Positions 3,090-19,096 of a DNA stretch of 64,000 bases are shown here, piece after piece (the first letter of the stretch is position 1; every line of letters begins with the position of its first letter). Source of the stretch: Candidatus Ruminimicrobiellum bubulum (GTDB taxonomy: Bacteria; Elusimicrobiota; Endomicrobiia; Endomicrobiales; Endomicrobiaceae); the NCBI GenBank assembly GCA_017651625.1, contig JAGCCP010000007.1, forward strand, positions 1 to 64,000. The letters are read 5' to 3'. The notes under the pieces were generated by a model. That model was not told where the DNA came from, did not search any database, and saw only the letters and a program-made list of their open reading frames with translations. A program made the position numbers and the translations under genes.

Positions 3090-4523
3090 TTACTTTGATA
3101 TTTTCTGAATATTATATTGTCTTACAATATTATTGTTTCTTATTGTTTTTATATTATCAATATCCAAAGATAAATTAAAAATTTCGTCTATCCTGCAAGG
3201 TAAGTTTCCACTACCTGTAGGTTCATAAACAAAAGCGCCGTTCGAATAATCGAATTTTTCCGGCATACCCCAAATTTCAAATTGTGTTACCTTATGTCCG
3301 TTAGAATATCTGAAAGTTTTTATCTTGTTTTTTGTGTAATATGCTATTGAAGCTGAAAGTTGATGTTCCGGTGTAACAACAAATTCATATCCATCGTTCA
3401 ACAATTTTTCAGCCAATTCTTTATAGCCATGGAAATAGTTTGTTGCATCGGCAATTGCCGTTTTATCTGAAATTTTATCTAATGGAAGAATTGTGTATTT
3501 TGCATGAAGACCTACAATAACGGAAACGACTAAGTTAAATATCAGCGCACCTACAACAAGTCTTTGTTTTATTTTTCCGCCATCAACAAAATATTTTGCG
3601 GCAATAATCGAAAAAGTAAAATATGCGGGAATAGGCCAATTACCGCCGGGCAACCTTTTTAATGCCGTAACTACATAAAACAAAATTACGGGAACCGAAA
3701 AAGCTGCCAAATAAATATTTTTGGTTTCTTTAGAAAATAAATTTTTTGTACCTATATACAATATAGGGAAGAACAAAATTACGTTAAAAACTCCCGCCTG
3801 TGTTCCCAAATATTCAAAAATATAATTAAATCTTATACCTTCATTGGATAAACCGTGTCCTATTTGGTAAGAAAAAGAAGCCCAATCATGTTGCCAATTC
3901 CAATATATTACCGGTAAAAAGCATATAATCGAAATTATTATTCCTACATATAGCTGATAATTTTTGAACCAGTTTAATTTTTTATCCAAAAGCATATATA
4001 TACCCAAACTCATAACAAACAAACAAGCAGTATATTTCGATAACATAGATAAACCGAAAAACAGTCCTATCAAATACCAATAGTTACAATTTTTTGTATC
4101 GATTAATTTCCAAACATAATATGTTGCAAGTGACAAGAATAAAAATACAGGAGTATCCGGCGTAATAATTATTGAGGCGGTAAATAATATCGGCATGGAA
4201 TGAAGAATAACAATACTTGCACTTGCCATTGATTCATTATTAAAAAGTTTCATTACCAATTTCCAAAGTAAGAAACTTAAAATTATGGTAACTATTACAC
4301 TTGAAAAACGAACCGCTATTTCGCTGTTACTGAAAAGAGTGGTAAGTTTAATGAAATATGCAACCATCGGAGCATGGTCATAATAGCTTGGTTCAAGGCG
4401 TGTAGACCACAACCAATAATATGCTTCATCCGAATGTAACGGAATTGAAGACACAAAAAGTTTCCATAGTACGGAAACAAAAACAAAAATTATCGTATTT
4501 TTAAGATTAAATATTTTTGTCAC
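3090..4523 (-). CDS. GT39/ArnT-like membrane glycosyltransferase
   Basis: A 477-residue polytopic membrane protein of the dolichyl/undecaprenyl-phosphate mannosyl- or aminoarabinose-transferase superfamily (PMT_2). The first outer loop has the acidic motif HSDEAYYWLW followed by YYDHAPMVAYF, the known catalytic/metal loop of this family. About 9-10 hydrophobic segments follow, and a soluble C-terminal domain runs from about 360. It probably moves a sugar from a polyprenyl-phosphate donor to a lipid or protein outside the inner membrane; donor and acceptor cannot be named. The start is GTG at 4523 with GGGG five bases upstream. It overlaps the preceding PHP gene by 17 bases, so the two are translationally coupled at the end of the tol-pal transcription unit. 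Confidence 0.82.
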   Translation of the reverse strand: MTKIFNLKNTIIFVFVSVLWKLFVSSIPLHSDEAYYWLWSTRLEPSYYDHAPMVAYFIKLTTLFSNSEIAVRFSSVIVTIILSFLLWKLVMKLFNNESMASASIVILHSMPILFTASIIITPDTPVFLFLSLATYYVWKLIDTKNCNYWYLIGLFFGLSMLSKYTACLFVMSLGIYMLLDKKLNWFKNYQLYVGIIISIICFLPVIYWNWQHDWASFSYQIGHGLSNEGIRFNYIFEYLGTQAGVFNVILFFPILYIGTKNLFSKETKNIYLAAFSVPVILFYVVTALKRLPGGNWPIPAYFTFSIIAAKYFVDGGKIKQRLVVGALIFNLVVSVIVGLHAKYTILPLDKISDKTAIADATNYFHGYKELAEKLLNDGYEFVVTPEHQLSASIAYYTKNKIKTFRYSNGHKVTQFEIWGMPEKFDYSNGAFVYEPTGSGNLPCRIDEIFNLSLDIDNIKTIRNNNIVRQYNIQKISK

Positions 4524-10181: not shown

Positions 10182-10211
10182 ATTATATATAATAAGTTCA
10201 ACCATTGTCAA
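10182..10211 (-). promoter_or_regulatory. Promoter of the tol-pal operon
   Basis: Minus strand: perfect TTGACA (10206-10211), 18-base spacer, perfect TATAAT (10182-10187). This predicts a start near 10175 and a leader of about 43 bases before pal. Confidence 0.7.
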
Positions 10212-10262: not shown

Positions 10263-11906
10263 TTAATTCTGATTTTCCAGGAACTTTTTTATGGAAACCT
10301 TAGTAAATTTATTTTCTATATCATCGTTTACCGAATTTGTATAAAATTCTTCTATTTCATATATGCCTTGAGCCAACAAATATTGTTCTAAATTCTTGAA
10401 ATAGTACTTATCTTTTTGTAATTCTTTGAAAATTATAACATTTTTGTTCCCTCTTTCTTTTATATGTGTGGTTATATTTTTCTTTCCTTCAAATGTTTTG
10501 ATAAATGTTTTTTGCTCAAAAGGGTTTACTAACATTAAACAGATAAGGATCAATAATAGCCCCCAAATTTTTTTATTTTTTATTTCCAACATGATATAAA
10601 TCGAAAAATAGTAAAAAAGTATCATTATAATGCCCGGAACGGCAAAAAACACCACCGAATAATCTAGTGTGGCAGAATAATTTATGATATATAAAACAAA
10701 TTTAAAGATATATGATAACACAATTGATACAGATAACGAAACATAGTAAGACATGAAAGTTGATATATAAAACACAAAAAACAGTCCGATAATTACAGGA
10801 ATTATCGGAACTATTATTAAATTTAAAATAAAAGAAATAACCGATAATTTACCAAAATAAAACACAAGTAACGGAATAAGTGCCATTTGAGCCGATATAG
10901 TAACACAAGCTATATCCCAAACATATTTAACATATCTGTTTTTTATTTTACCGAAACACATACTGAACTTTGGATACAAATATAACAAACCGAAAGTTGC
11001 CAAAAAGGAAAGTTGAAAACTTGCCGTAAACAAACTTTGCGGATTAAATATTAAAATTACAAACGCGGATAGTGCCAAAGCATTATATATTAACGGTTCC
11101 CTGTTAAGCATAAGTGCAACAAGCAAACAAGAAAACATTATTGCCGCTCTTATTGCCGGAGGGTTTGCTCCGGTTAACAAGACATAAAAAAATAATGCAG
11201 GTATTGTTAAAATGTAAATATAATTTAATTTTAAACCTAACAACTTAAAACAAAACATAAATATCACTGCACAAAAACCTATATGAAGTCCGCTTATAAC
11301 CAAAATATGTATAAGACCTGTATTAATGAAATCTTCTTTTATATCTTTATCCAAGTCAGATTTATTTCCTGTAATCATAGATTTTAATACGGAAGAAACA
11401 GGCTCTCTAAAGAAAGTATCTGTTGTGTTTTCTATACTGTTTCTTATTCTAAATGACATTTGCTTTATCTTGTTCGGTTGTTTATCAACCAACTCAAAAT
11501 TTTGCTGATAAAAAATCGTATAGACATTTTCTCTTTGAAGATACAAATTGTAATCAAAAATATTAGGAAATATCGGCTTTTCCGGAACGTTTAGTTTACC
11601 TGAAACAAAAACAATGTCCCCGTAATTTATGTTGTATGCCGTTGAAGCATAAACAAGTGTTTTTTCTTTTTTTATATTTTGTCCATCTATGTTATAAACT
11701 TCCAATATGAATTGCTGCTTTTCATCTTTTTGTATAGGTTCGGTTACAACTTTACCGGTAAGTTCGGTTACTTGTTTACTTGTGTTATTTATTAAAAAAC
11801 TATTTTTTTCAGGAGAAAACATTCCTAAATAGTTTAAAACAATAATTATAAATATATAGATAATTAAAATTGAAATTATCGGTCGGTTAAATATTATTTT
11901 TTTCAT
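10263..11906 (-). CDS. comEC: ComEC/Rec2-family DNA-uptake channel, lacking the nuclease domain
   Basis: 547 residues. N-terminal membrane helix; a DUF4131-type OB domain (about 40-150, with GDIVFVSGKLNVPEKPIFPN); then the Competence membrane domain with GLIHILVISGLHIGF and NPPAIRAAIMFSCLL. ComEC forms the inner-membrane pore for single-stranded DNA during transformation. Many ComEC proteins add a metallo-beta-lactamase-like domain (700-800 residues in all). Here only about 100 residues follow the last helix and no HxHxDH motif is seen. The start overlaps the stop of the upstream TMTC-like gene by 4 bases (ATGA), so the two are coupled. Confidence 0.85.
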   Translation of the reverse strand: MKKIIFNRPIISILIIYIFIIIVLNYLGMFSPEKNSFLINNTSKQVTELTGKVVTEPIQKDEKQQFILEVYNIDGQNIKKEKTLVYASTAYNINYGDIVFVSGKLNVPEKPIFPNIFDYNLYLQRENVYTIFYQQNFELVDKQPNKIKQMSFRIRNSIENTTDTFFREPVSSVLKSMITGNKSDLDKDIKEDFINTGLIHILVISGLHIGFCAVIFMFCFKLLGLKLNYIYILTIPALFFYVLLTGANPPAIRAAIMFSCLLVALMLNREPLIYNALALSAFVILIFNPQSLFTASFQLSFLATFGLLYLYPKFSMCFGKIKNRYVKYVWDIACVTISAQMALIPLLVFYFGKLSVISFILNLIIVPIIPVIIGLFFVFYISTFMSYYVSLSVSIVLSYIFKFVLYIINYSATLDYSVVFFAVPGIIMILFYYFSIYIMLEIKNKKIWGLLLILICLMLVNPFEQKTFIKTFEGKKNITTHIKERGNKNVIIFKELQKDKYYFKNLEQYLLAQGIYEIEEFYTNSVNDDIENKFTKVSIKKFLENQN

Positions 11907-13501
11907 TTATTAATTTTTTGAAGTTCTTGCAAATATTGTTTGTACCCGTCATCGTATGGGTCTTCTTGAACGGCAAGTTTTGCATATTCTATGGCTTTAT
12001 TTATATCTTTATCTCTTTTTAGATATATAGTACTTAAGTTCCTGTAACATTGTGCTTTCCCTATTCCGCTTTCTAAAGACTTCTTATACAATTCTTCCGC
12101 CTCATCCATATAGCCTTCATAATAATATATCAATGCCAAATCGGTGTTGAAAAGATTTTCCCAATAAGCGTTCCCGCTATGATTATTTAAAGATATTGTT
12201 TTTTTTAATAGCTCTTTTGCTTTGTCAAAATTACCGCTTTCAAAATGCAATCTTGCCAACCAATAAACAGCACCATGGTAATTAGGTGCATCTAAATATG
12301 CATTTGAGAAATATATCATTTTATTTTGATATTTATCTTGCTGATTGAAAGAATAGAAACCGTAATAAAAGAACAATACAATGTACAGAGCCAGTAAATA
12401 TTTTGTTAATGCTTTATATTTTGTTGTCAATTTATAAATTATATGTGCCAATAATAATACAATTCCAAATAAAGATATTATTAATCTATGATTTAAATAA
12501 ACATAATCTTGTAACAAAAATGTGGTAATTAAACCTGCTATAAACCAAATCATCGAAAACAATAATATCTTTATATTCAATATTTTTTTGTAGCATGAAA
12601 ATAAAACAATAATCAATAAAATTATATCCACAACAATATTTTTAAATACTAAACCGATATCATATAGCATAATCGGAATATAAGACGGAATAAAAAATTT
12701 ATACAGATAAGTACTGATACCGGTAATAAAATTATTAAGACATAACGACATATTGGTGAAATAATATTTCATGCCTACGGCTTGAACGGAAACATTTCTC
12801 AAATAAAAATAAATTATTACAATCGGTACATATATCAAAATATTTTTAAATATTTCTTTTTTGTTTAACTTATAATCAAAACAAAAAATAAACATCACGT
12901 ATACAAATAACATCAACAGTGCCGTCTCTTTCGTAAATAGTGCTACAGTCCAAAACAAAATGTATGCCAACAAATTCATAAATGAATTATTCTTCAAATA
13001 TTTAACAAAAAATATGAACGATAAAAATATAAATATTGCAAGCAAAGTATCATTTCTTGCCGGTATCCACGCAACACATGATGTTAATATCGGATGAACC
13101 GACACCAACAATATTAAAAGTTTTAATATTGTTCTGTTTGCATTTAACTTTAATAAAAAGATATACATCGAATATAATGCCAGTATAAATAGTATTATGT
13201 TTGTTAAATGATATATTTTTGTATTTAAACCGAATGTCGTTGTTTCCAATAAAAACGATAAATTTAAAATTGGCCTATAATATTGAAAATCACCGGAATA
13301 ATAACATGATGTTACGAATAATTGAGGAATATTTTTTAAATTTGAGAGAAATTCTGTTTTCTCTAATATCAGACTATTATCATCATGATATGTAAAATCA
13401 AAATTTATACTTTTACCGTACAAACAAAAAACCACCGCGGTTAAAAGTAAAAAGAAAAATATTTCTGATTTAATTGTTGCATATAATTTTTTATTTAACA
13501 T
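11903..13501 (-). CDS. TMTC-like membrane protein with TPR tail (copy 3 of 3 in transcription order)
   Basis: 532 residues. A polytopic membrane domain (about 1-400) opens with a shared LLTAVVFCLYGKSINFDFTY, followed by a HDD acidic loop, then VHPILTSCVAWIPARND, the layout of TMTC/GT-C-type O-mannosyltransferase relatives. The C-terminal 100 residues hold TPR-like helices (DLALIYYYEGYMDEAEELY, QCYRNLSTIYLKRDKDINKA). The probable role is transfer of a sugar from a lipid carrier to protein or glycan outside the membrane; this is inference. Two blocks, 12995-13069 and 13388-13459, are identical at the DNA level to the neighbouring paralogue. It overlaps comEC (4 bases) and copy 2 (11 bases). Confidence 0.72.
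   Translation of the reverse strand: MLNKKLYATIKSEIFFFLLLTAVVFCLYGKSINFDFTYHDDNSLILEKTEFLSNLKNIPQLFVTSCYYSGDFQYYRPILNLSFLLETTTFGLNTKIYHLTNIILFILALYSMYIFLLKLNANRTILKLLILLVSVHPILTSCVAWIPARNDTLLAIFIFLSFIFFVKYLKNNSFMNLLAYILFWTVALFTKETALLMLFVYVMFIFCFDYKLNKKEIFKNILIYVPIVIIYFYLRNVSVQAVGMKYYFTNMSLCLNNFITGISTYLYKFFIPSYIPIMLYDIGLVFKNIVVDIILLIIVLFSCYKKILNIKILLFSMIWFIAGLITTFLLQDYVYLNHRLIISLFGIVLLLAHIIYKLTTKYKALTKYLLALYIVLFFYYGFYSFNQQDKYQNKMIYFSNAYLDAPNYHGAVYWLARLHFESGNFDKAKELLKKTISLNNHSGNAYWENLFNTDLALIYYYEGYMDEAEELYKKSLESGIGKAQCYRNLSTIYLKRDKDINKAIEYAKLAVQEDPYDDGYKQYLQELQKINK
12995..13069. repeat. 75-base block identical between two TMTC-like paralogues
   Basis: Identical to 14550-14624. It encodes the region around the PARNDTLLAIFIFLSFIFF motif. 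A second shared block is 13388-13459 = 14943-15014 (72 bases, the first membrane helix). The flanking DNA is clearly more diverged, which points to gene conversion rather than uniform recent duplication. Confidence 0.85.
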
Positions 13502-15056
13502 TTTTTATTTCATTTTCCAAAGATAATAAATATTTTTTATACTCATCGTCATATTGGTCTTCCCGAACTGCAAGTCTTGCATATTCTATGGCTTTATTTA
13601 TATCTTTATCCCTTTTTAAATAAATTATACTTAAATTTCTGTAACATTGCGCTTTATTTATTCCGCTTTCCACAGACTTATTATACAATTCTTCCGCTTT
13701 ATCCATATCTCCTTCACGATAATATATCAAAGCCAAATCCGAATAATATACACAATTTGTCTTTTGTAAAAATTCTTTTGCTTTTTCATAGTTACCGTTT
13801 TCAATGTACAGACATGCCATCCAGTAACAAGTAGAACTACTGTCAGGAGCATCTATATATGCATTAATCTTAAAATTAATCTCATCTCTATATTTATTTT
13901 GAAACGAAAAAGAATAACTAAAACAGAATATAAATACTAAACAAAACAAGAATACAAAAATATATTTAATTTTCTTTAAGCATATAATTTTATCCATAAT
14001 CAATGCAACCATCATAACTATAGCGGAAATAGGTATTACAACTCTATGATTTAAAACGCTGTATTCTTTCAACAAAAATGTAGGTAATAAAAATAAGATC
14101 AGTATTGATATACACCATACAAACTGTTTTTTTGTAACAAGTTTTTTATACAAGGATATTGTTATGAACATAATGGCAACAAACACAATTAAAAAGCCGA
14201 AAAATTCAAATTTGTAATCATAAGCTATGACATGAATATCCAAAGTTATTAACTGATACAAATACATGAATAAGCCGAAAAATAAATTTCGCAGATACTC
14301 GCTAACACTTATAGTATTACTTAACAATCCGGTCCCCGGCACATAAAAAAATCTTAAACAGAAATAAATCAAAAGTATCGTAGCAAATAGCAATACATTC
14401 TTTATAATCTCCCTTTTATTTAATCTATACTCAAAGCACCATATAAACAGAGGAAACAAAAATAAAACTATCAAAGCGGTTTCTTTTGTAAATATTGCCA
14501 TCGCCCAAAACAAAATGTATAACAACAAATTCTTAAAAGAATTGTTTTCCAAATATTTAACAAAAAATATGAACGATAAAAATATAAATATTGCAAGCAA
14601 AGTATCATTTCTTGCCGGTATCCAAACTACACAAGAAGTAAGTATCGGATGAACTGCTATCAATACCAAAACAAATTTTAATACTGTTTCATTTAATTTT
14701 AATTTTTTTAAGAAAACATACATCAAATACAGCGATAATAAAAACAAAATTATATTTGTTAAATGGTATATTTGCTTATTAAACCCGAATAATGATGTTT
14801 CAAGCAGGAAAGATAATTTGAGAACTGGACGATAATACTGAACATCTTTTGAAAAATAAACAGATGTTTTAAACAAATCCGGCACATTATCAATATCAGA
14901 TAAAAATTCTATATTGTCTAAAACCAACAAATCGTCATCAAAATATGTAAAATCAAAATTTATACTTTTACCGTACAAACAAAAAACCACCGCGGTTAAA
15001 AGTAAAAAGAAAAACAAATTTGATTTTAGAAAAAGATATATTTTACTATCCTTCAT
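13491..15056 (-). CDS. TMTC-like membrane protein with TPR tail (copy 2)
   Basis: 521 residues, same plan as its neighbours: a first helix containing FFFLLLTAVVFCLYGKS, an acidic YFDDDLL loop, HPILTSCVVWIPARND, about ten membrane helices, and a TPR tail (DLALIYYREGDMDKAEELYN, NLSIIYLKRDKDINKAIEYA). It is closest to the 11903-13501 copy and shares with it two blocks of identical DNA, 14550-14624 and 14943-15014, embedded in more divergent sequence. It overlaps its neighbours by 11 bases on each side. The ATG at 15056 lies in the last codons of the preceding copy, so translation is probably coupled. The acceptor is unknown. Confidence 0.72.
   Translation of the reverse strand: MKDSKIYLFLKSNLFFFLLLTAVVFCLYGKSINFDFTYFDDDLLVLDNIEFLSDIDNVPDLFKTSVYFSKDVQYYRPVLKLSFLLETSLFGFNKQIYHLTNIILFLLSLYLMYVFLKKLKLNETVLKFVLVLIAVHPILTSCVVWIPARNDTLLAIFIFLSFIFFVKYLENNSFKNLLLYILFWAMAIFTKETALIVLFLFPLFIWCFEYRLNKREIIKNVLLFATILLIYFCLRFFYVPGTGLLSNTISVSEYLRNLFFGLFMYLYQLITLDIHVIAYDYKFEFFGFLIVFVAIMFITISLYKKLVTKKQFVWCISILILFLLPTFLLKEYSVLNHRVVIPISAIVMMVALIMDKIICLKKIKYIFVFLFCLVFIFCFSYSFSFQNKYRDEINFKINAYIDAPDSSSTCYWMACLYIENGNYEKAKEFLQKTNCVYYSDLALIYYREGDMDKAEELYNKSVESGINKAQCYRNLSIIYLKRDKDINKAIEYARLAVREDQYDDEYKKYLLSLENEIKNVK
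14943..15014. repeat. 72-base block identical between two TMTC-like paralogues
   Basis: Identical to 13388-13459. It encodes the first membrane helix and the start of the acidic loop. The third copy (about 16735-16810) is similar but carries several differences. Confidence 0.85.
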
Positions 15057-16824
15057 TTTTTTTATTTTCTAATAATTTTAAATATTGTTTATACTCATCG
15101 TTATAAGGCTCTTCCAGAACGGCAAGTTTTGCATATTCTATGGCTATATCAATATTACCGCTTGCTTCATACAACCTGCCTAAATTGTACATATATTGCA
15201 CATTTTTTTTATCAAATGATAACAGATTAGACAAAATATTTATTGCCTCTTTGTAATATCCTGCTTTTGCATATATTATTGCCATATTTTCCTGTGCATT
15301 GGTATTATACGGCCTTAATTTATGTGCTTGTTGCCCGTAAAATAATGCCTTATCAAGTTCGTTTTGTTCATAATATATTTTGCTCAATTCCCTACAACAT
15401 ACATATTGTGTTTCCTCTTTTTGTGTCGGAAGAAGTTCAATATATAGTTCTTCCGCTTCTTTTATTTTTCCCTGTTTATAGAGAATCTGTGCCATTCTTG
15501 TTTTTCCCGCTATAAACTCAGGATATTCTTCTACTATTTTTTTTGCTATTTCCATAGCCTTATCATAATCTTTTTTATACATATAATCCTGCAGTATAAC
15601 ACTTTGAACTATCGGGCTGTTTCCTGCATATTTTTCGGAATATTTGATATAAGATTCCGATGTAGAATATTTGTTTGCCTGTAAAGACGAATTAAAACAA
15701 AGGATTCCAAATAAAAGAATATAAACTGTTACGAATAATTTTTTATACTTAAAATATATTTTTTCCAAAAGTTTGCACGATACCAATATCACGGCAAACA
15801 ATGGTATTAAAATTCTATGAAACAGCAATAAATAATTGCTTTTCAAAAACAAAAATGTGGGTAAAAGCCATACGATAAACCAAACCAAGCAAAAAAATAA
15901 AACTTTAAAAGAAATCATTTTTTTTCGATACATAACATACAGTATCAAAAATGAAAAAATGTATGATATCAAATGCAAAACTTTATTTATGTTAAGAGTA
16001 TCCACCATTATCGGAATATCAAAGAAATTAAAAATTTTGTAAATAAAATAAGCGTATCCGTAAATAACATTATCGAAATAATCTTTAAAATATATTATAT
16101 GCTCACCCATTTTAACCGCACGAACGGAAACAGATCTTAAACAGAAATAAACTGCAAACACACAGAAAAAGATAAAAAGATTTTTTAGAGTTTCTTTCTT
16201 GCTCAACTTATAATCAAAACAATATATGAACAGAATATACAAAAACATAACAAATATCGCAGATTCTTTTGTAAGCAACGATATTGTAAAAAAAGAAATA
16301 TACAGCGCCAAATTTGTCAACGAATTATTTTCTAAATATTTGATAAAAAATATAAAAGATAAAAATACAAATACCGCAAGTAAAGTGTCGTTCCTTGCCG
16401 GCACCCAAACAACACTCGATGAAAGTATTGGATGAACACAAATCAATATCATCAACAGTTTTAATACTGTTTTATTTGTGTTCAGTTTTGATAAAAAAAC
16501 ATACATCAAATATAATGCCAAAATAAACAATATTATATTTGTTATGTGATAAATTTTTGTATTGTTATAAAACAAAATTGCTTCTATCGAAAAAGACAGT
16601 GTTAAAATAGGTCTGTAATAATAATAGTTTTTTGATAAATAAGCGGATGTTGTAAATAAAGACGGTATATTTTTCCACTGAGACAGATAATTTATATTAT
16701 TTACTATTAAAGAGGCATCATCATGGTTTGTAAAATCAAAATTTATACTTTTTCCGTACAACAAAAAAACTATTGTCGTTAAAAGTAAAAAGAAAAACAA
16801 ATTTGATTTTAAAAATTTTAACAT
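15046..16824 (-). CDS. TMTC-like membrane protein with longer TPR tail (copy 1)
   Basis: 592 residues if started at ATG 16824, where the first helix LKSNLFFFLLLTTIVFLLYG aligns with the paralogues. An in-frame TTG at 16851 would add nine residues without a ribosome site. It carries the acidic NHDDASLIV loop and HPILSSSVVWVPARND, then about ten membrane helices. The C-terminal region (about 400-590) holds four or so TPR units, about twice the tail of the two downstream copies. It is the most diverged of the three and the first in the operon copy 1, copy 2, copy 3, comEC. Extra TPR units suggest a different partner or acceptor. Confidence 0.72.
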   Translation of the reverse strand: MLKFLKSNLFFFLLLTTIVFLLYGKSINFDFTNHDDASLIVNNINYLSQWKNIPSLFTTSAYLSKNYYYYRPILTLSFSIEAILFYNNTKIYHITNIILFILALYLMYVFLSKLNTNKTVLKLLMILICVHPILSSSVVWVPARNDTLLAVFVFLSFIFFIKYLENNSLTNLALYISFFTISLLTKESAIFVMFLYILFIYCFDYKLSKKETLKNLFIFFCVFAVYFCLRSVSVRAVKMGEHIIYFKDYFDNVIYGYAYFIYKIFNFFDIPIMVDTLNINKVLHLISYIFSFLILYVMYRKKMISFKVLFFCLVWFIVWLLPTFLFLKSNYLLLFHRILIPLFAVILVSCKLLEKIYFKYKKLFVTVYILLFGILCFNSSLQANKYSTSESYIKYSEKYAGNSPIVQSVILQDYMYKKDYDKAMEIAKKIVEEYPEFIAGKTRMAQILYKQGKIKEAEELYIELLPTQKEETQYVCCRELSKIYYEQNELDKALFYGQQAHKLRPYNTNAQENMAIIYAKAGYYKEAINILSNLLSFDKKNVQYMYNLGRLYEASGNIDIAIEYAKLAVLEEPYNDEYKQYLKLLENKKNEG

Positions 16825-16870
16825 AAGCTTTATTAAATTAAAATACACCAAATCGCAAAGCGATTTAAGA

Positions 16871-16975
16871 GACCTTAAGATTTAAGACGAAACGAAGTAT
16901 TTGCCGATTGCAGTGTGCATAAGAATTAGCACATAAAAGAGGCAAATACAAAGTTGTAGTCTAAATATTAAGGTC
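16871..16975. repeat. Family C long imperfect hairpin upstream of the TMTC-like operon
   Basis: GACCTTAAGATTTAAGAC (16871-16888) pairs with GTCTAAATATTAAGGTC (16959-16975). Inside, AACGAAGTATTTGCC pairs with GGCAAATACAAAGTT, and a small TGTGC/GCACA stem sits near the loop. The mini-hairpin AAATCGC-AAA-GCGATTT adjoins it at 16850-16866. No gene is seen in 16825-16987. Confidence 0.6.
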
Positions 16976-16987
16976 GATATAAATATT

Positions 16988-19096
16988 TTATTGTAATGAT
17001 GACAAATTAACAAACGAATTAAATTTCTCGGTAATATAATTGATTAACGATATTCTGTTAATTTTTATATTTTCATCTTCGCACATAACCATAACTTTTT
17101 CAAAGAAGTTATCCAAATACGGTTTTATATCGTTAAGTTTGTTTATTGCATTTGCATAATCTTTTTTGGAAAGTAACTCTTCCAACTGTTTATCTATAAC
17201 AACATACTGGTTATATAAATTCTGTTCAGGTTCTTCTTTCAACAAATCTGTTTTAACAATATCGGAAATATTTAGTTTTTGTTTCTTTGCCTGATTTAAA
17301 ATGTTGCTTGCTCTTTTGAATATTGTTGTGATAGATTCAAAAGAGTTTTCTTTTCTTAAGTTTTGTAAAGCGTCGAGTTTTTTCTTTATATCACCCAAAA
17401 CTTTTAAGCCTAACTTTTGCGAAGGAATGATAACCGCTTTGACTTCATCGAATTTGTAACCTTCGTTTTCATAAATATTTTCTATTCTGCTCCAGAAAAA
17501 TTTTACAAGTCTTTGTTTTGCCGTAGCAAAAGTATCTTTTTCCTTAATTTTTTCAGGTAAAGAATTTAAGGCAATATCTAAAATTTTTTCAAAATCGGTT
17601 TCCGGCAAAAATTCTCTTATCATTCTAACAATACCGATTGCCATTCTTCTAAGTCCGTAAGGATCCGCGGAACCTGAAGGTTCCAAACCTATAGCAAAAT
17701 CCGCAGCAACGGTATCAATTTTATCCGCTAAAGAAACAACTACGGACAAAATGTTTTCCGGTAAAGTTCCCGAAGCCGATAAAGGCCAATAATGTTGTTC
17801 TATAGCTTTTGATATTTCGTCACTTTCCCCTGCAACTTTAGAATAAATTCTTCCCATTATTCCTTGAAGTTCGGGATATTCAAAAACCATTTCGCTAACC
17901 AAATCGGTTTTAGATAAATCTATAACTCTCGTTAAAGTATCTTTATTTATGTTTAACTTATTTTCTTCGTTTATAAAATTTGCAACAGCTTTTATTCTTG
18001 TAAGTTTTTCGTAAACAGTTCCTATTTCTTTTTGGAATATAAGCCCTTTTAATCTTTCAATAGACTGTTCAAAAGGTTTCTTTATATCGTTATCGTAAAA
18101 GAAGACTGAGTCTTCAAGTCTTGCAACAACAACTTTCTCGTAACCTGCTCTGACTATATCCAAATTATCTGATTTACCGTTTCTTACATTAATGAAATAG
18201 TTTGTTAATTTGCCCATGGAATCTTTAACGGCAAAACATTTTTGTTGTTTCTTAAGACAAGTTATAAGAACTTCCGGAGGAAGCTTCAAATATTTTTCGT
18301 TAAACTTACACAATACCGCGGTAGGATATTCTACAAGTTGGTTAACTTCATTAACCAAGCTTTCGTCCAATATCGCTTTAGCGGAAATACTGTTTGCAAC
18401 CTCGTTTATTGAAGCTATTATTCTTTGTTTTCTTTCATCTTGATCTACCAAAACACAGTTATTTTGCAACGTTTCTTTATAAACATCCGCAGATTCTATA
18501 ACGATAGGTTTTGTTGTTAATGTGTGTAAGCCGATAGTTTTGTTTGAAGATTTTATTGCACCGTCAGCTAACGAAAATTTTATTATCTTATCGCCGTACA
18601 TAGCAACTATTGTTCTTATAGGTCTTGCAAACTTTAAACAGGAACTCTCCCATACCATTGTTTTAGGAAAATATATTTTTTGAATAATTATCGGAAATAT
18701 TTCGGCTAAAATGTTTGTTACTTTTTCACCTTTAATTTCTTTTGAATAAGTATAATATTGACCTTTCGGAGTATCTTTTATAACAAGTTGTTCCGGTTTT
18801 ACTTGATGTTTGTTTGAAAATCCGAGTATTGCCTGTGTCCAGTTACCGTTAGCATCTTTACCTGCTTTTGCGGATGGTCCGTTAAACTCTTGAACACTAT
18901 CTTTACTTTTTTCTTCAACATCCGCTATCGTTAAAACAAGTCTTCTCGGTGTAGCATAAGTTTTTATTTCGCCGAAACCTACCATTTTTTCGGTCAACAT
19001 ATCGTTAACAAACTTTTGCATTTGTTCAAGTGCGGGTGCAATATATGAAGAAGGTATTTCTTCCGTTCCTATTTCAAGTAAAACATTTTTAACCAT
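16988..19096 (-). CDS. glyS: Glycyl-tRNA synthetase beta subunit
   Basis: 702 residues, close to the usual 690. It begins VLLEIGTEEIPSSYI, typical of GlyS, and carries ATPRRLVLTI, the GSADPYGLRRMAIGI motif at about 500, and a C-terminal helical anticodon-binding region. GlyS binds tRNA-Gly, and GlyQ supplies the catalytic class II core. The two genes are in order glyQ-glyS on the minus strand, separated by a family A palindrome (19138-19268). AGAGGA precedes the ATG at 19096 at normal spacing. Confidence 0.95.
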   Translation of the reverse strand: MVKNVLLEIGTEEIPSSYIAPALEQMQKFVNDMLTEKMVGFGEIKTYATPRRLVLTIADVEEKSKDSVQEFNGPSAKAGKDANGNWTQAILGFSNKHQVKPEQLVIKDTPKGQYYTYSKEIKGEKVTNILAEIFPIIIQKIYFPKTMVWESSCLKFARPIRTIVAMYGDKIIKFSLADGAIKSSNKTIGLHTLTTKPIVIESADVYKETLQNNCVLVDQDERKQRIIASINEVANSISAKAILDESLVNEVNQLVEYPTAVLCKFNEKYLKLPPEVLITCLKKQQKCFAVKDSMGKLTNYFINVRNGKSDNLDIVRAGYEKVVVARLEDSVFFYDNDIKKPFEQSIERLKGLIFQKEIGTVYEKLTRIKAVANFINEENKLNINKDTLTRVIDLSKTDLVSEMVFEYPELQGIMGRIYSKVAGESDEISKAIEQHYWPLSASGTLPENILSVVVSLADKIDTVAADFAIGLEPSGSADPYGLRRMAIGIVRMIREFLPETDFEKILDIALNSLPEKIKEKDTFATAKQRLVKFFWSRIENIYENEGYKFDEVKAVIIPSQKLGLKVLGDIKKKLDALQNLRKENSFESITTIFKRASNILNQAKKQKLNISDIVKTDLLKEEPEQNLYNQYVVIDKQLEELLSKKDYANAINKLNDIKPYLDNFFEKVMVMCEDENIKINRISLINYITEKFNSFVNLSSLQ

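What the first reader, a model, noticed from the sequence alone, without database searches (positions are those of the whole stretch)
11903..16824. Homogenised triplet of TMTC-like membrane/TPR proteins coupled to comEC
Three overlapping genes share one design. Two of them carry blocks of 75 and 72 identical bases (first helix and PARND region) inside otherwise diverged sequence, the signature of gene conversion. Tail length differs. Coupling to a ComEC-type channel by ATGA suggests a shared envelope process, for example glycosylation of a pilin or uptake component.
Basis: partly seen in the sequence, partly recalled or inferred. Interest (0 to 1): 0.5.

Follow-up and report, generated by a model that had tools for sequence, protein, structure and literature searches.

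The report
Pilus-linked TMTC-like glycosyltransferase tandem array
Three neighbouring membrane-enzyme genes in an Endomicrobia-type bacterium, two of them partly overwritten by copying from each other, look like sugar-attaching enzymes that travel through evolution with the bacterium's pili rather than with the DNA-uptake gene beside them.

Summary
Genes A, B and C overlap and run into comEC. A and B share exact blocks of 75 and 72 nt (longest run in 5,000 codon shuffles: 47 nt), plus one of 34 nt. Gene conversion is supported: A is closer overall to its counterpart in a congener (66% aa) than to B (55%), yet in the blocks A=B at 100% while that counterpart matches A at only 86% and 77%. An array at the same place in another genus shows a 422-nt tract. 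The predicted structure is a GT-C glycosyltransferase fold with a C-terminal TPR domain. The proteins resemble eukaryotic TMTCs (DD, YRP, RxD, KE motifs) but lack DUF1736 and several TMTC motifs. The comEC tie is only an operon tie: comEC persists where the array is gone. What tracks these genes in the bacterial family is the type IV pilus: 22 of 22 genomes with a full-length PilB-type ATPase have at least 3 TMTC-like matches, 15 of 15 without have 0-1. comEC and GT2 enzymes do not track it; another GT-C does so only partly. Best reading: periplasmic TPR/GT-C protein glycosyltransferases serving the pilus. Substrate and sugar are unproven.

The parts
11903..13501 (-). gene A: TMTC-like GT-C protein, 532 aa, C-terminal TPRs
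13491..15056 (-). gene B: TMTC-like GT-C protein, 521 aa; PMT_2 hit over cut-off; AF2 model pLDDT 86, pTM 0.86
15046..16824 (-). gene C: TMTC-like GT-C protein, 592 aa from ATG (601 aa from TTG at 16851), longer TPR tail
12995..13069 (-). conversion tract 1 in A (75 nt, PARND = RxD motif region); identical to 14550-14624 in B
14550..14624 (-). conversion tract 1 in B
13388..13459 (-). conversion tract 2 in A (72 nt, first membrane helix); identical to 14943-15014 in B
14943..15014 (-). conversion tract 2 in B
11980..12013 (-). shorter identical block (34 nt) in the TPR end of A; identical to 13577-13610 in B (P=0.008, weaker)
13577..13610 (-). shorter identical block (34 nt) in the TPR end of B
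10263..11906 (-). comEC (DUF4131 + Competence domains), start codon overlaps the stop of A (ATGA); operon neighbour, not shown to share the function

Best explanation
A, B and C are inner-membrane GT-C glycosyltransferases. Their active site opens to the periplasm and their C-terminal TPR arm is most likely periplasmic too. They would take one sugar from a polyprenyl-phosphate carrier and put it on proteins of the type IV pilus pathway (pilins, pseudopilins, or surface proteins that depend on that machine), with the TPR arm and the divergent membrane middle region choosing the acceptor. The three genes arose by tandem duplication between glyS and comEC. The site holds 0 to 3 copies among relatives, and A and B have exchanged short pieces by gene conversion, which keeps the catalytic segments alike while the middle region (residues about 226-405, 31% aa identity between A and B) drifts apart. 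comEC is mainly a passenger of the operon. Shown: array, conversion, predicted GT-C fold, motifs, synteny, co-occurrence with PilB. Inferred: glycosyl transfer, sugar, acceptor, topology.
For: GT-C fold: AF2 model (pLDDT 86.3, pTM 0.86) aligns over 315-349 residues at Z 16.3-21.6 to OST/STT3, PglB, AglB, ArnT, Pmt1-Pmt2, Pmt4, ALG12 and AftD. TPR at about 405-521. In 11 of 11 aligned proteins the DD, YRP and KE motifs and the late HR are invariant; the R of RxD is in 10 of 11 and an acidic +2 residue in 11 of 11. Conversion; a 422-nt run in G026:C104 with G016 as comparison. Pilus link: 22 of 22 family genomes with PilB-type T2SSE (E<1e-100) have at least 3 TMTC-like matches, 15 of 15 without have 0-1. 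TMTC-like versus PF07963 pilin counts: rho 0.85 in 37 genomes, 0.54 within the 22 PilB+. Controls: comEC 19/22 vs 13/15 and GT2 medians 12 vs 11 do not track; another GT-C does not at E 1e-10 (21/22 vs 14/15) or 1e-40 (21/22 vs 12/15, p 0.28). G007 (2.0 Mb, 97% complete) has no PilB-type ATPase, one pilin and no array, yet keeps comEC, glyS and 15 GT2 genes. A weaker TMTC-like gene follows the pilus genes in 4 genomes of two genera, one follows a pilin in G013, and one follows pilin-prepilin peptidase in G045. A DPM-synthase-like GT2 exists in the genome (83 bits to 5mlz).
Against: No enzyme activity or glycan is shown. In this genome no TMTC-like gene is seen beside a pilin (the contig of one, C2, ends where congeners have a pilin about 4-6 kb away) and its pilus operon carries none. 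Across 16 genomes 8 of 87 listed TMTC-like places lie within 10 kb of a pilin, against 3.7 expected (P=0.037, not independent); within 2 kb, 1 against 0.9. The control GT-C, held to near-ortholog matches (E 1e-100), is also commoner with PilB: 20/22 vs 7/15, p 0.006, so shared loss in host-bound lineages is not excluded. The perfect split uses thresholds set after seeing the data, and only 3 well-supported independent contrasts exist (all concordant, sign test p=0.25). Outside the family all 24 sampled genomes have a PilB-type ATPase but only 16 of 24 have a TMTC-like match at 1e-10, so pili do not need these enzymes in general. PMT_2 passes its cut-off only in B among the three.
Confidence: 0.46

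Rival explanations
1. The proteins are GT-C glycosyltransferases for surface polysaccharide or lipid A (ArnT-like), and their match with PilB only reflects loss of many surface functions in host-bound lineages.
For: The nearest folds include ArnT (Z 18.7-18.9). One paralog (C57) lies among sugar-nucleotide and GT2 genes (function names recalled from the sequences). The lineages without PilB include small genomes. Close matches to the window's ArnT-like GT-C are also rarer without PilB (7/15 versus 20/22 at E 1e-100).
Against: GT2 numbers do not follow the TMTC-like genes (rho 0.27, partial -0.03). At the threshold that separates the TMTC-like genes perfectly (1e-40) the ArnT-like control is 21/22 versus 12/15. 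G007, G015 and G028 have genomes of 1.9-2.2 Mb yet lack PilB and the expansion.
Confidence: 0.28
2. The proteins act with ComEC in DNA uptake, as the first reader suggested from the ATGA overlap.
For: Tight glyS-TMTC-comEC order in 8 of 10 contiguous loci, in three genera. comEC and C both evolve faster than their neighbours (dN 0.12 and 0.14 versus 0.01-0.07 between G000 and G010). Pili can serve DNA uptake.
Against: comEC is beside glyS without any TMTC-like gene in G003 and G007. It is found in 13 of 15 genomes without the expansion. Three further TMTC-like genes, plus one weak match, lie elsewhere in this genome. In the other family genomes glyS and comEC were on different contigs or far apart (contig ends may hide some).
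Confidence: 0.12
3. They are not enzymes any more but TPR scaffolds that help assemble the pilus or secretion machine (PilW/Tgl-like), using a dead GT-C membrane domain as anchor.
For: The TPR part gives weak hits to PilW and Tgl models, far below their cut-offs. Co-occurrence with PilB.
Against: The candidate catalytic residues are invariant or nearly so and one exact A/B block covers the RxD region.
Confidence: 0.1
4. The identical blocks are an assembly artefact or plain purifying selection, not gene conversion.
For: The blocks lie in the best conserved parts; the genome is a draft in 58 contigs.
Against: Selection on protein does not keep 49 of 49 codons identical where dS is otherwise about 1.2-1.6; the counterpart in G001 differs in both blocks. 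Completeness is 100, contamination 0.04. A second case exists in G026, though that genome is 9% contaminated.
Confidence: 0.05

Closest known systems
Eukaryotic TMTC1-4 O-mannosyltransferases (PMC7801869, passages read)
   Same: GT-C membrane part followed by TPRs; DD in the first loop, YRP end of motif M2, RxD (here PARND), KE of motif M4, late R of motif M7.
   Different: No DUF1736 hit, no S-H-K of M2, no DW (M5) and no conserved PxxP (M6) seen in the alignment, no E or Y of M7; bacterial, tandem, beside comEC.
ArnT / PMT enzymes (PF13231 PMT_2)
   Same: Same fold over about 340 residues; B passes the PMT_2 cut-off.
   Different: C-terminal TPR arm (the MIR domains of PMTs and the tail of ArnT are recalled); only 10-13% identity to the ArnT, Pmt1-Pmt2 and Pmt4 chains.
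Pilin O-glycosylation enzymes of Neisseria and Pseudomonas (PglL/PglO, TfpO, TfpW; recalled, listings only)
   Same: Proposed job: adding sugar to pilins on the periplasmic side from a lipid carrier.
   Different: Those are not TPR proteins (recalled); here there are several paralogs per genome and few are near a pilin gene.

Membership tests
GT-C glycosyltransferase superfamily | GT-C fold | tested here: met
   Z 16.3-21.6, 315-349 aligned residues, rmsd 4.1-4.8 to OST, PglB, ArnT, PMT and other GT-C chains
GT-C glycosyltransferase superfamily | acidic motif in the first extracytoplasmic loop | tested here: met
   D40-D41 invariant in 11 of 11
GT-C glycosyltransferase superfamily | sugar transfer from a polyprenyl-phosphate carrier | not testable with these tools
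   only a DPM-synthase-like GT2 was found in the genome
TMTC family | DUF1736 domain | tested here: not met
   no such hit among 11 proteins at E 0.001 nor for A, B, C at E 1
TMTC family | C-terminal TPR array | tested here: met
   at E 0.001 the commonest TPR models hit 9 of 11 proteins
TMTC family | motifs M1-M7 of PMC7801869 | tested here: not met
   M1, M3 and the KE of M4 present; M2 and M7 partial; M5 and M6 not seen (one search read)
Pilin glycosyltransferase | co-occurrence with the pilus machine | tested here: met
   22/22 versus 0/15 in the family; but 8 of 24 genomes outside it have a PilB-type ATPase without a TMTC-like match
Pilin glycosyltransferase | gene beside the pilin or in the pilus operon | tested here: inconclusive
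   seen in G013, G045, G016, G020, G026, G029, not in this genome; 8 of 87 within 10 kb, 3.7 expected
Pilin glycosyltransferase | modified pilin | not testable with these tools
   needs mass spectrometry
Gene conversion between tandem paralogs | identity confined to tracts and younger than the split from the ortholog | tested here: met

The most novel reading that the evidence does not exclude
Endomicrobia carry a multi-gene set of TMTC-like O-glycosyltransferases dedicated to the type IV pilus. Catalytic segments are shared among copies by gene conversion while acceptor-reading parts diverge, so that different paralogs mark different pilins, in step with the large pilin sets (56-89 genes) of some congeners. 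This would be a bacterial counterpart, and a possible forerunner, of cadherin O-mannosylation by TMTCs.
Probability: 0.23. Interest if true: 0.72.

Novelty: new variant of a known kind. Interest (0 to 1): 0.5.

Why it matters
As far as I recall, bacterial GT-C/TPR proteins are common but rarely given a role. A clean co-occurrence with the pilus ATPase in one bacterial family, including large genomes that lack both, gives a testable role. It would also bear on where TMTC-type protein O-mannosylation came from. The array is a compact case of gene conversion acting on catalytic segments.

Tried and rejected
Rejected: a uniform history of A and B; homogenisation of all three genes (C has only short runs); a functional tie to ComEC as the main story; strong physical linkage to pilins (8 of 87 within 10 kb, 3.7 expected; 1 versus 0.9 within 2 kb). 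The 87 places are those that one search listed for 16 genomes; its list was cut, and two second pieces of the same gene (in G020 and G024) were left out of the count.

Recurrent conversion in all arrays: no. Of 13 tandem or neighbouring pairs tested, one shows long runs (G026:C104, 422 and 93 nt), one a 37-nt run (G034:C50, P=0.0005), one a 24-nt run (G034:C42, P=0.0125) and ten nothing unusual (P at least 0.15).

Phylogenetic sign test: too few independent contrasts (3 on starred branches, 5 on the best tree). G002, G008, G009, G011, G021 and G031 of the family are not in that tree: no glyS match, except G011, whose 187-residue match was not fetched. Within the two genera that vary, the chance of the observed split is 1 in 330, ignoring relatedness inside the genus.

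Control GT-C: at E 1e-10 it does not follow PilB (21/22 vs 14/15), but that count takes in more distant GT-C proteins; at 1e-40 it is 21/22 vs 12/15 (p 0.28) and at 1e-100 20/22 vs 7/15 (p 0.006).

TMTC-like counts are numbers of matches, so genes broken over contigs count more than once in fragmented genomes. An earlier count gave 13/15 for the control GT-C at E 1e-10; the computed figure is 14/15.

Papers: TMTC in bacteria (11 listed), Elusimicrobi + pilin, Ruminimicrobium, pilin glycosylation + tetratricopeptide + GT-C (12 of 16 listed), OST + pilin + TPR domain (none), E. minutum genome (10 of 78 listed), gene conversion + pilin glycosylation, TfpO/TfpW. From the titles and abstract starts listed none described pilus-linked TMTC-like enzymes; passages were read in PMC7801869, PMC8809381 and PMC11257099 only.
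Full report
The window lies in an unnamed draft genome of 1.88 Mb (58 contigs, completeness 100, contamination 0.04). The named records nearest to its array are Elusimicrobia/Endomicrobia MAGs, among them sheep-rumen and red-deer ones, and Candidatus Praeruminimicrobium purgamenti (record titles). Gene order on the minus strand is glyQ, glyS, C, B, A, comEC, pal and a Tol-type cluster (glyQ, glyS and the Tol-type names are recalled from the sequences; OmpA/Pal and TPR domains).

Observation. C, B, A and comEC overlap by 11, 11 and 4 nt. A and B are 56% identical in protein and 67% in DNA but share exact runs of 75, 72 and 34 nt; 5,000 shuffles of codon columns gave a longest run of 20 on average and 47 at most. 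A versus C and B versus C have runs of at most 34 nt. So two of the three genes are homogenised, in patches.

Gene conversion. The first gene after glyS in congener G001 is closest to A (66% aa, against 55% for A-B). In the first-helix block A and B are 100% identical while that gene differs at 14% of sites; in the PARND block it differs at 23%. Synonymous divergence of A-B is about 1.2 overall and 1.6 at residues 39-144, with no change at all in 49 codons of the two blocks. The exchange is therefore younger than the A/G001 split. In genus g7, G026 has two genes at the same place with an exact 422-nt run and a 93-nt run, where the corresponding two genes of G016 are about 72% alike. Ten of 13 pairs tested show nothing unusual.

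Copy number and comEC. Where glyS and comEC directly flank the site on one contig (10 genomes), they enclose 3 genes in G000, 1 in G005, G006, G010 and G020, 2 in G016, G026 and G029, and none in G003 and G007; G001 is split over contigs with at least 2. In the other family genomes with both genes found, glyS and comEC lie on different contigs or far apart; contig ends may hide some, and in two genomes of the same order, G040 and G042, they are 8-9 kb apart. comEC survives without the array and without the pilus ATPase (13 of 15). The operon tie is tight, but it is not evidence of one shared process.

What the proteins are. Pfam sees TPRs in all three, and PMT_2 over its cut-off only in B. The AF2 model of B (11-sequence alignment; pLDDT 86.3, pTM 0.86) matches GT-C enzymes with Z 16.3-21.6 over 315-349 residues (OST/STT3, PglB, AglB, ArnT, Pmt1-Pmt2, Pmt4, ALG12, AftD), and the last 115 residues match TPR domains at Z about 15. 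Foldseek alone ranked TPR proteins first. Of the seven TMTC motifs in PMC7801869 (passages read), DD, RxD and KE are present, YRP and the late R partly cover two more, DW and PxxP were not seen, and DUF1736 is absent. Placing the model's helices on the sequence with the positive-inside rule puts DD, YRP, RxD, KE and HR and the TPR arm on the periplasmic side; this is inference by eye. I call them TMTC-like, not TMTCs.

Pilus link. I counted TMTC-like matches (query B, E 1e-10), N-methylation pilins (PF07963), T2SSE ATPases (PF00437), GT2 (PF00535), comEC and the ArnT-like GT-C of the same window (3090-4523) in the 37 family genomes among the 61 of the relatives set. TMTC-like and pilin numbers correlate at rho 0.85 (0.80 with genome size held) and 0.54 inside the PilB+ group. 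A full-length PilB-type ATPase (E<1e-100) is in 22 genomes, and exactly those have 3-11 TMTC-like matches; the other 15 have 0 or 1, none better than 8.8e-32. comEC and GT2 do not follow. The control GT-C does not at E 1e-10 or 1e-40 but does in part at 1e-100 (20/22 vs 7/15, p 0.006), so the specificity is good but not absolute. On a glyS tree with 31 family genomes both traits change 5 times and together; 3 contrasts on well-supported branches are all concordant, too few for significance. G007 is the most telling: 2.0 Mb, 97% complete, comEC and glyS adjacent, but no PilB-type ATPase, no array and one pilin.

Linkage. In G016, G020, G026 and G029 a more distant TMTC-like gene follows the pilus genes. 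In G013 a 574-aa relative follows a pilin; in G045 one follows pilin and prepilin peptidase. Domain checks of chosen members (PilB, PilC, PilM and secretin in this genome's operon; the TMTC-like genes of G016, G045 and G013; prepilin peptidase; pilin) are. In this genome the pilus operon (L116) has none. Over 16 genomes, 8 of 87 listed TMTC-like places lie within 10 kb of a pilin against 3.7 expected, so linkage is a minor support.

Donor. Of 25 GT2 matches in the genome, five proteins were profiled and two compared with solved structures. One (C54:115484-115978) has dolichol-phosphate mannose synthase of known structure as its best match (83 bits) and another the glycosyltransferase sll0501 (159 bits; GtrB-type, recalled). 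A lipid-phosphate sugar donor is plausible; which sugar is unknown.

Literature. [quoted passage not shown] PMC8809381 (passages) reports comEC expression and partial pilus systems in termite Endomicrobium. Neither mentions this array in the passages seen.

Verdict.

Noticed in passing
G004, G006, G008 (congeners): 56-89 matches to the pilin N-methylation motif in genomes of 1.4-1.5 Mb, against 9 in this genome; a large pilin expansion.
   Followed up: partly
G000 contigs C6, C11 and C27: Four of the nine pilin hits of this genome lie within 700 bases of a contig start, so pilin repeats may have broken the assembly and the pilin number may be underestimated.
   Followed up: no
window 16845-16990: Long palindromic element between glyS and gene C (RNA fold z -7.3), with 16 further full or partial matches in the genome, so probably an interspersed repeat; also present at the same place in G010 at 76% identity. 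A terminator-like hairpin lies at its gene-C end.
   Followed up: partly
window 10263-11906 and 15046-16824: comEC and gene C are far more diverged from G010 (dN 0.12 and 0.14) than glyS, pal, tolB and exbB (0.009-0.017).
   Followed up: partly
window 10182-10211: Perfect sigma-70 consensus (TTGACA-18-TATAAT) on the minus strand between comEC and pal, which suggests pal starts its own transcript; promoter-like matches overall are no more frequent than in shuffles.
   Followed up: no
window 3090-4523: A second GT-C protein (ArnT-like, no TPR hit) in the same Tol-type gene cluster; a match at E 1e-10 in 35 of 37 family genomes, at 1e-100 in 27 of 37.
   Followed up: partly
G000 C57:68138-69709 (L078): TMTC-like paralog near what look like a prolipoprotein diacylglyceryl transferase gene, two GT2 genes and sugar-nucleotide enzymes (names recalled from sequence); a similar order is seen in L074 and L075.
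   Followed up: partly
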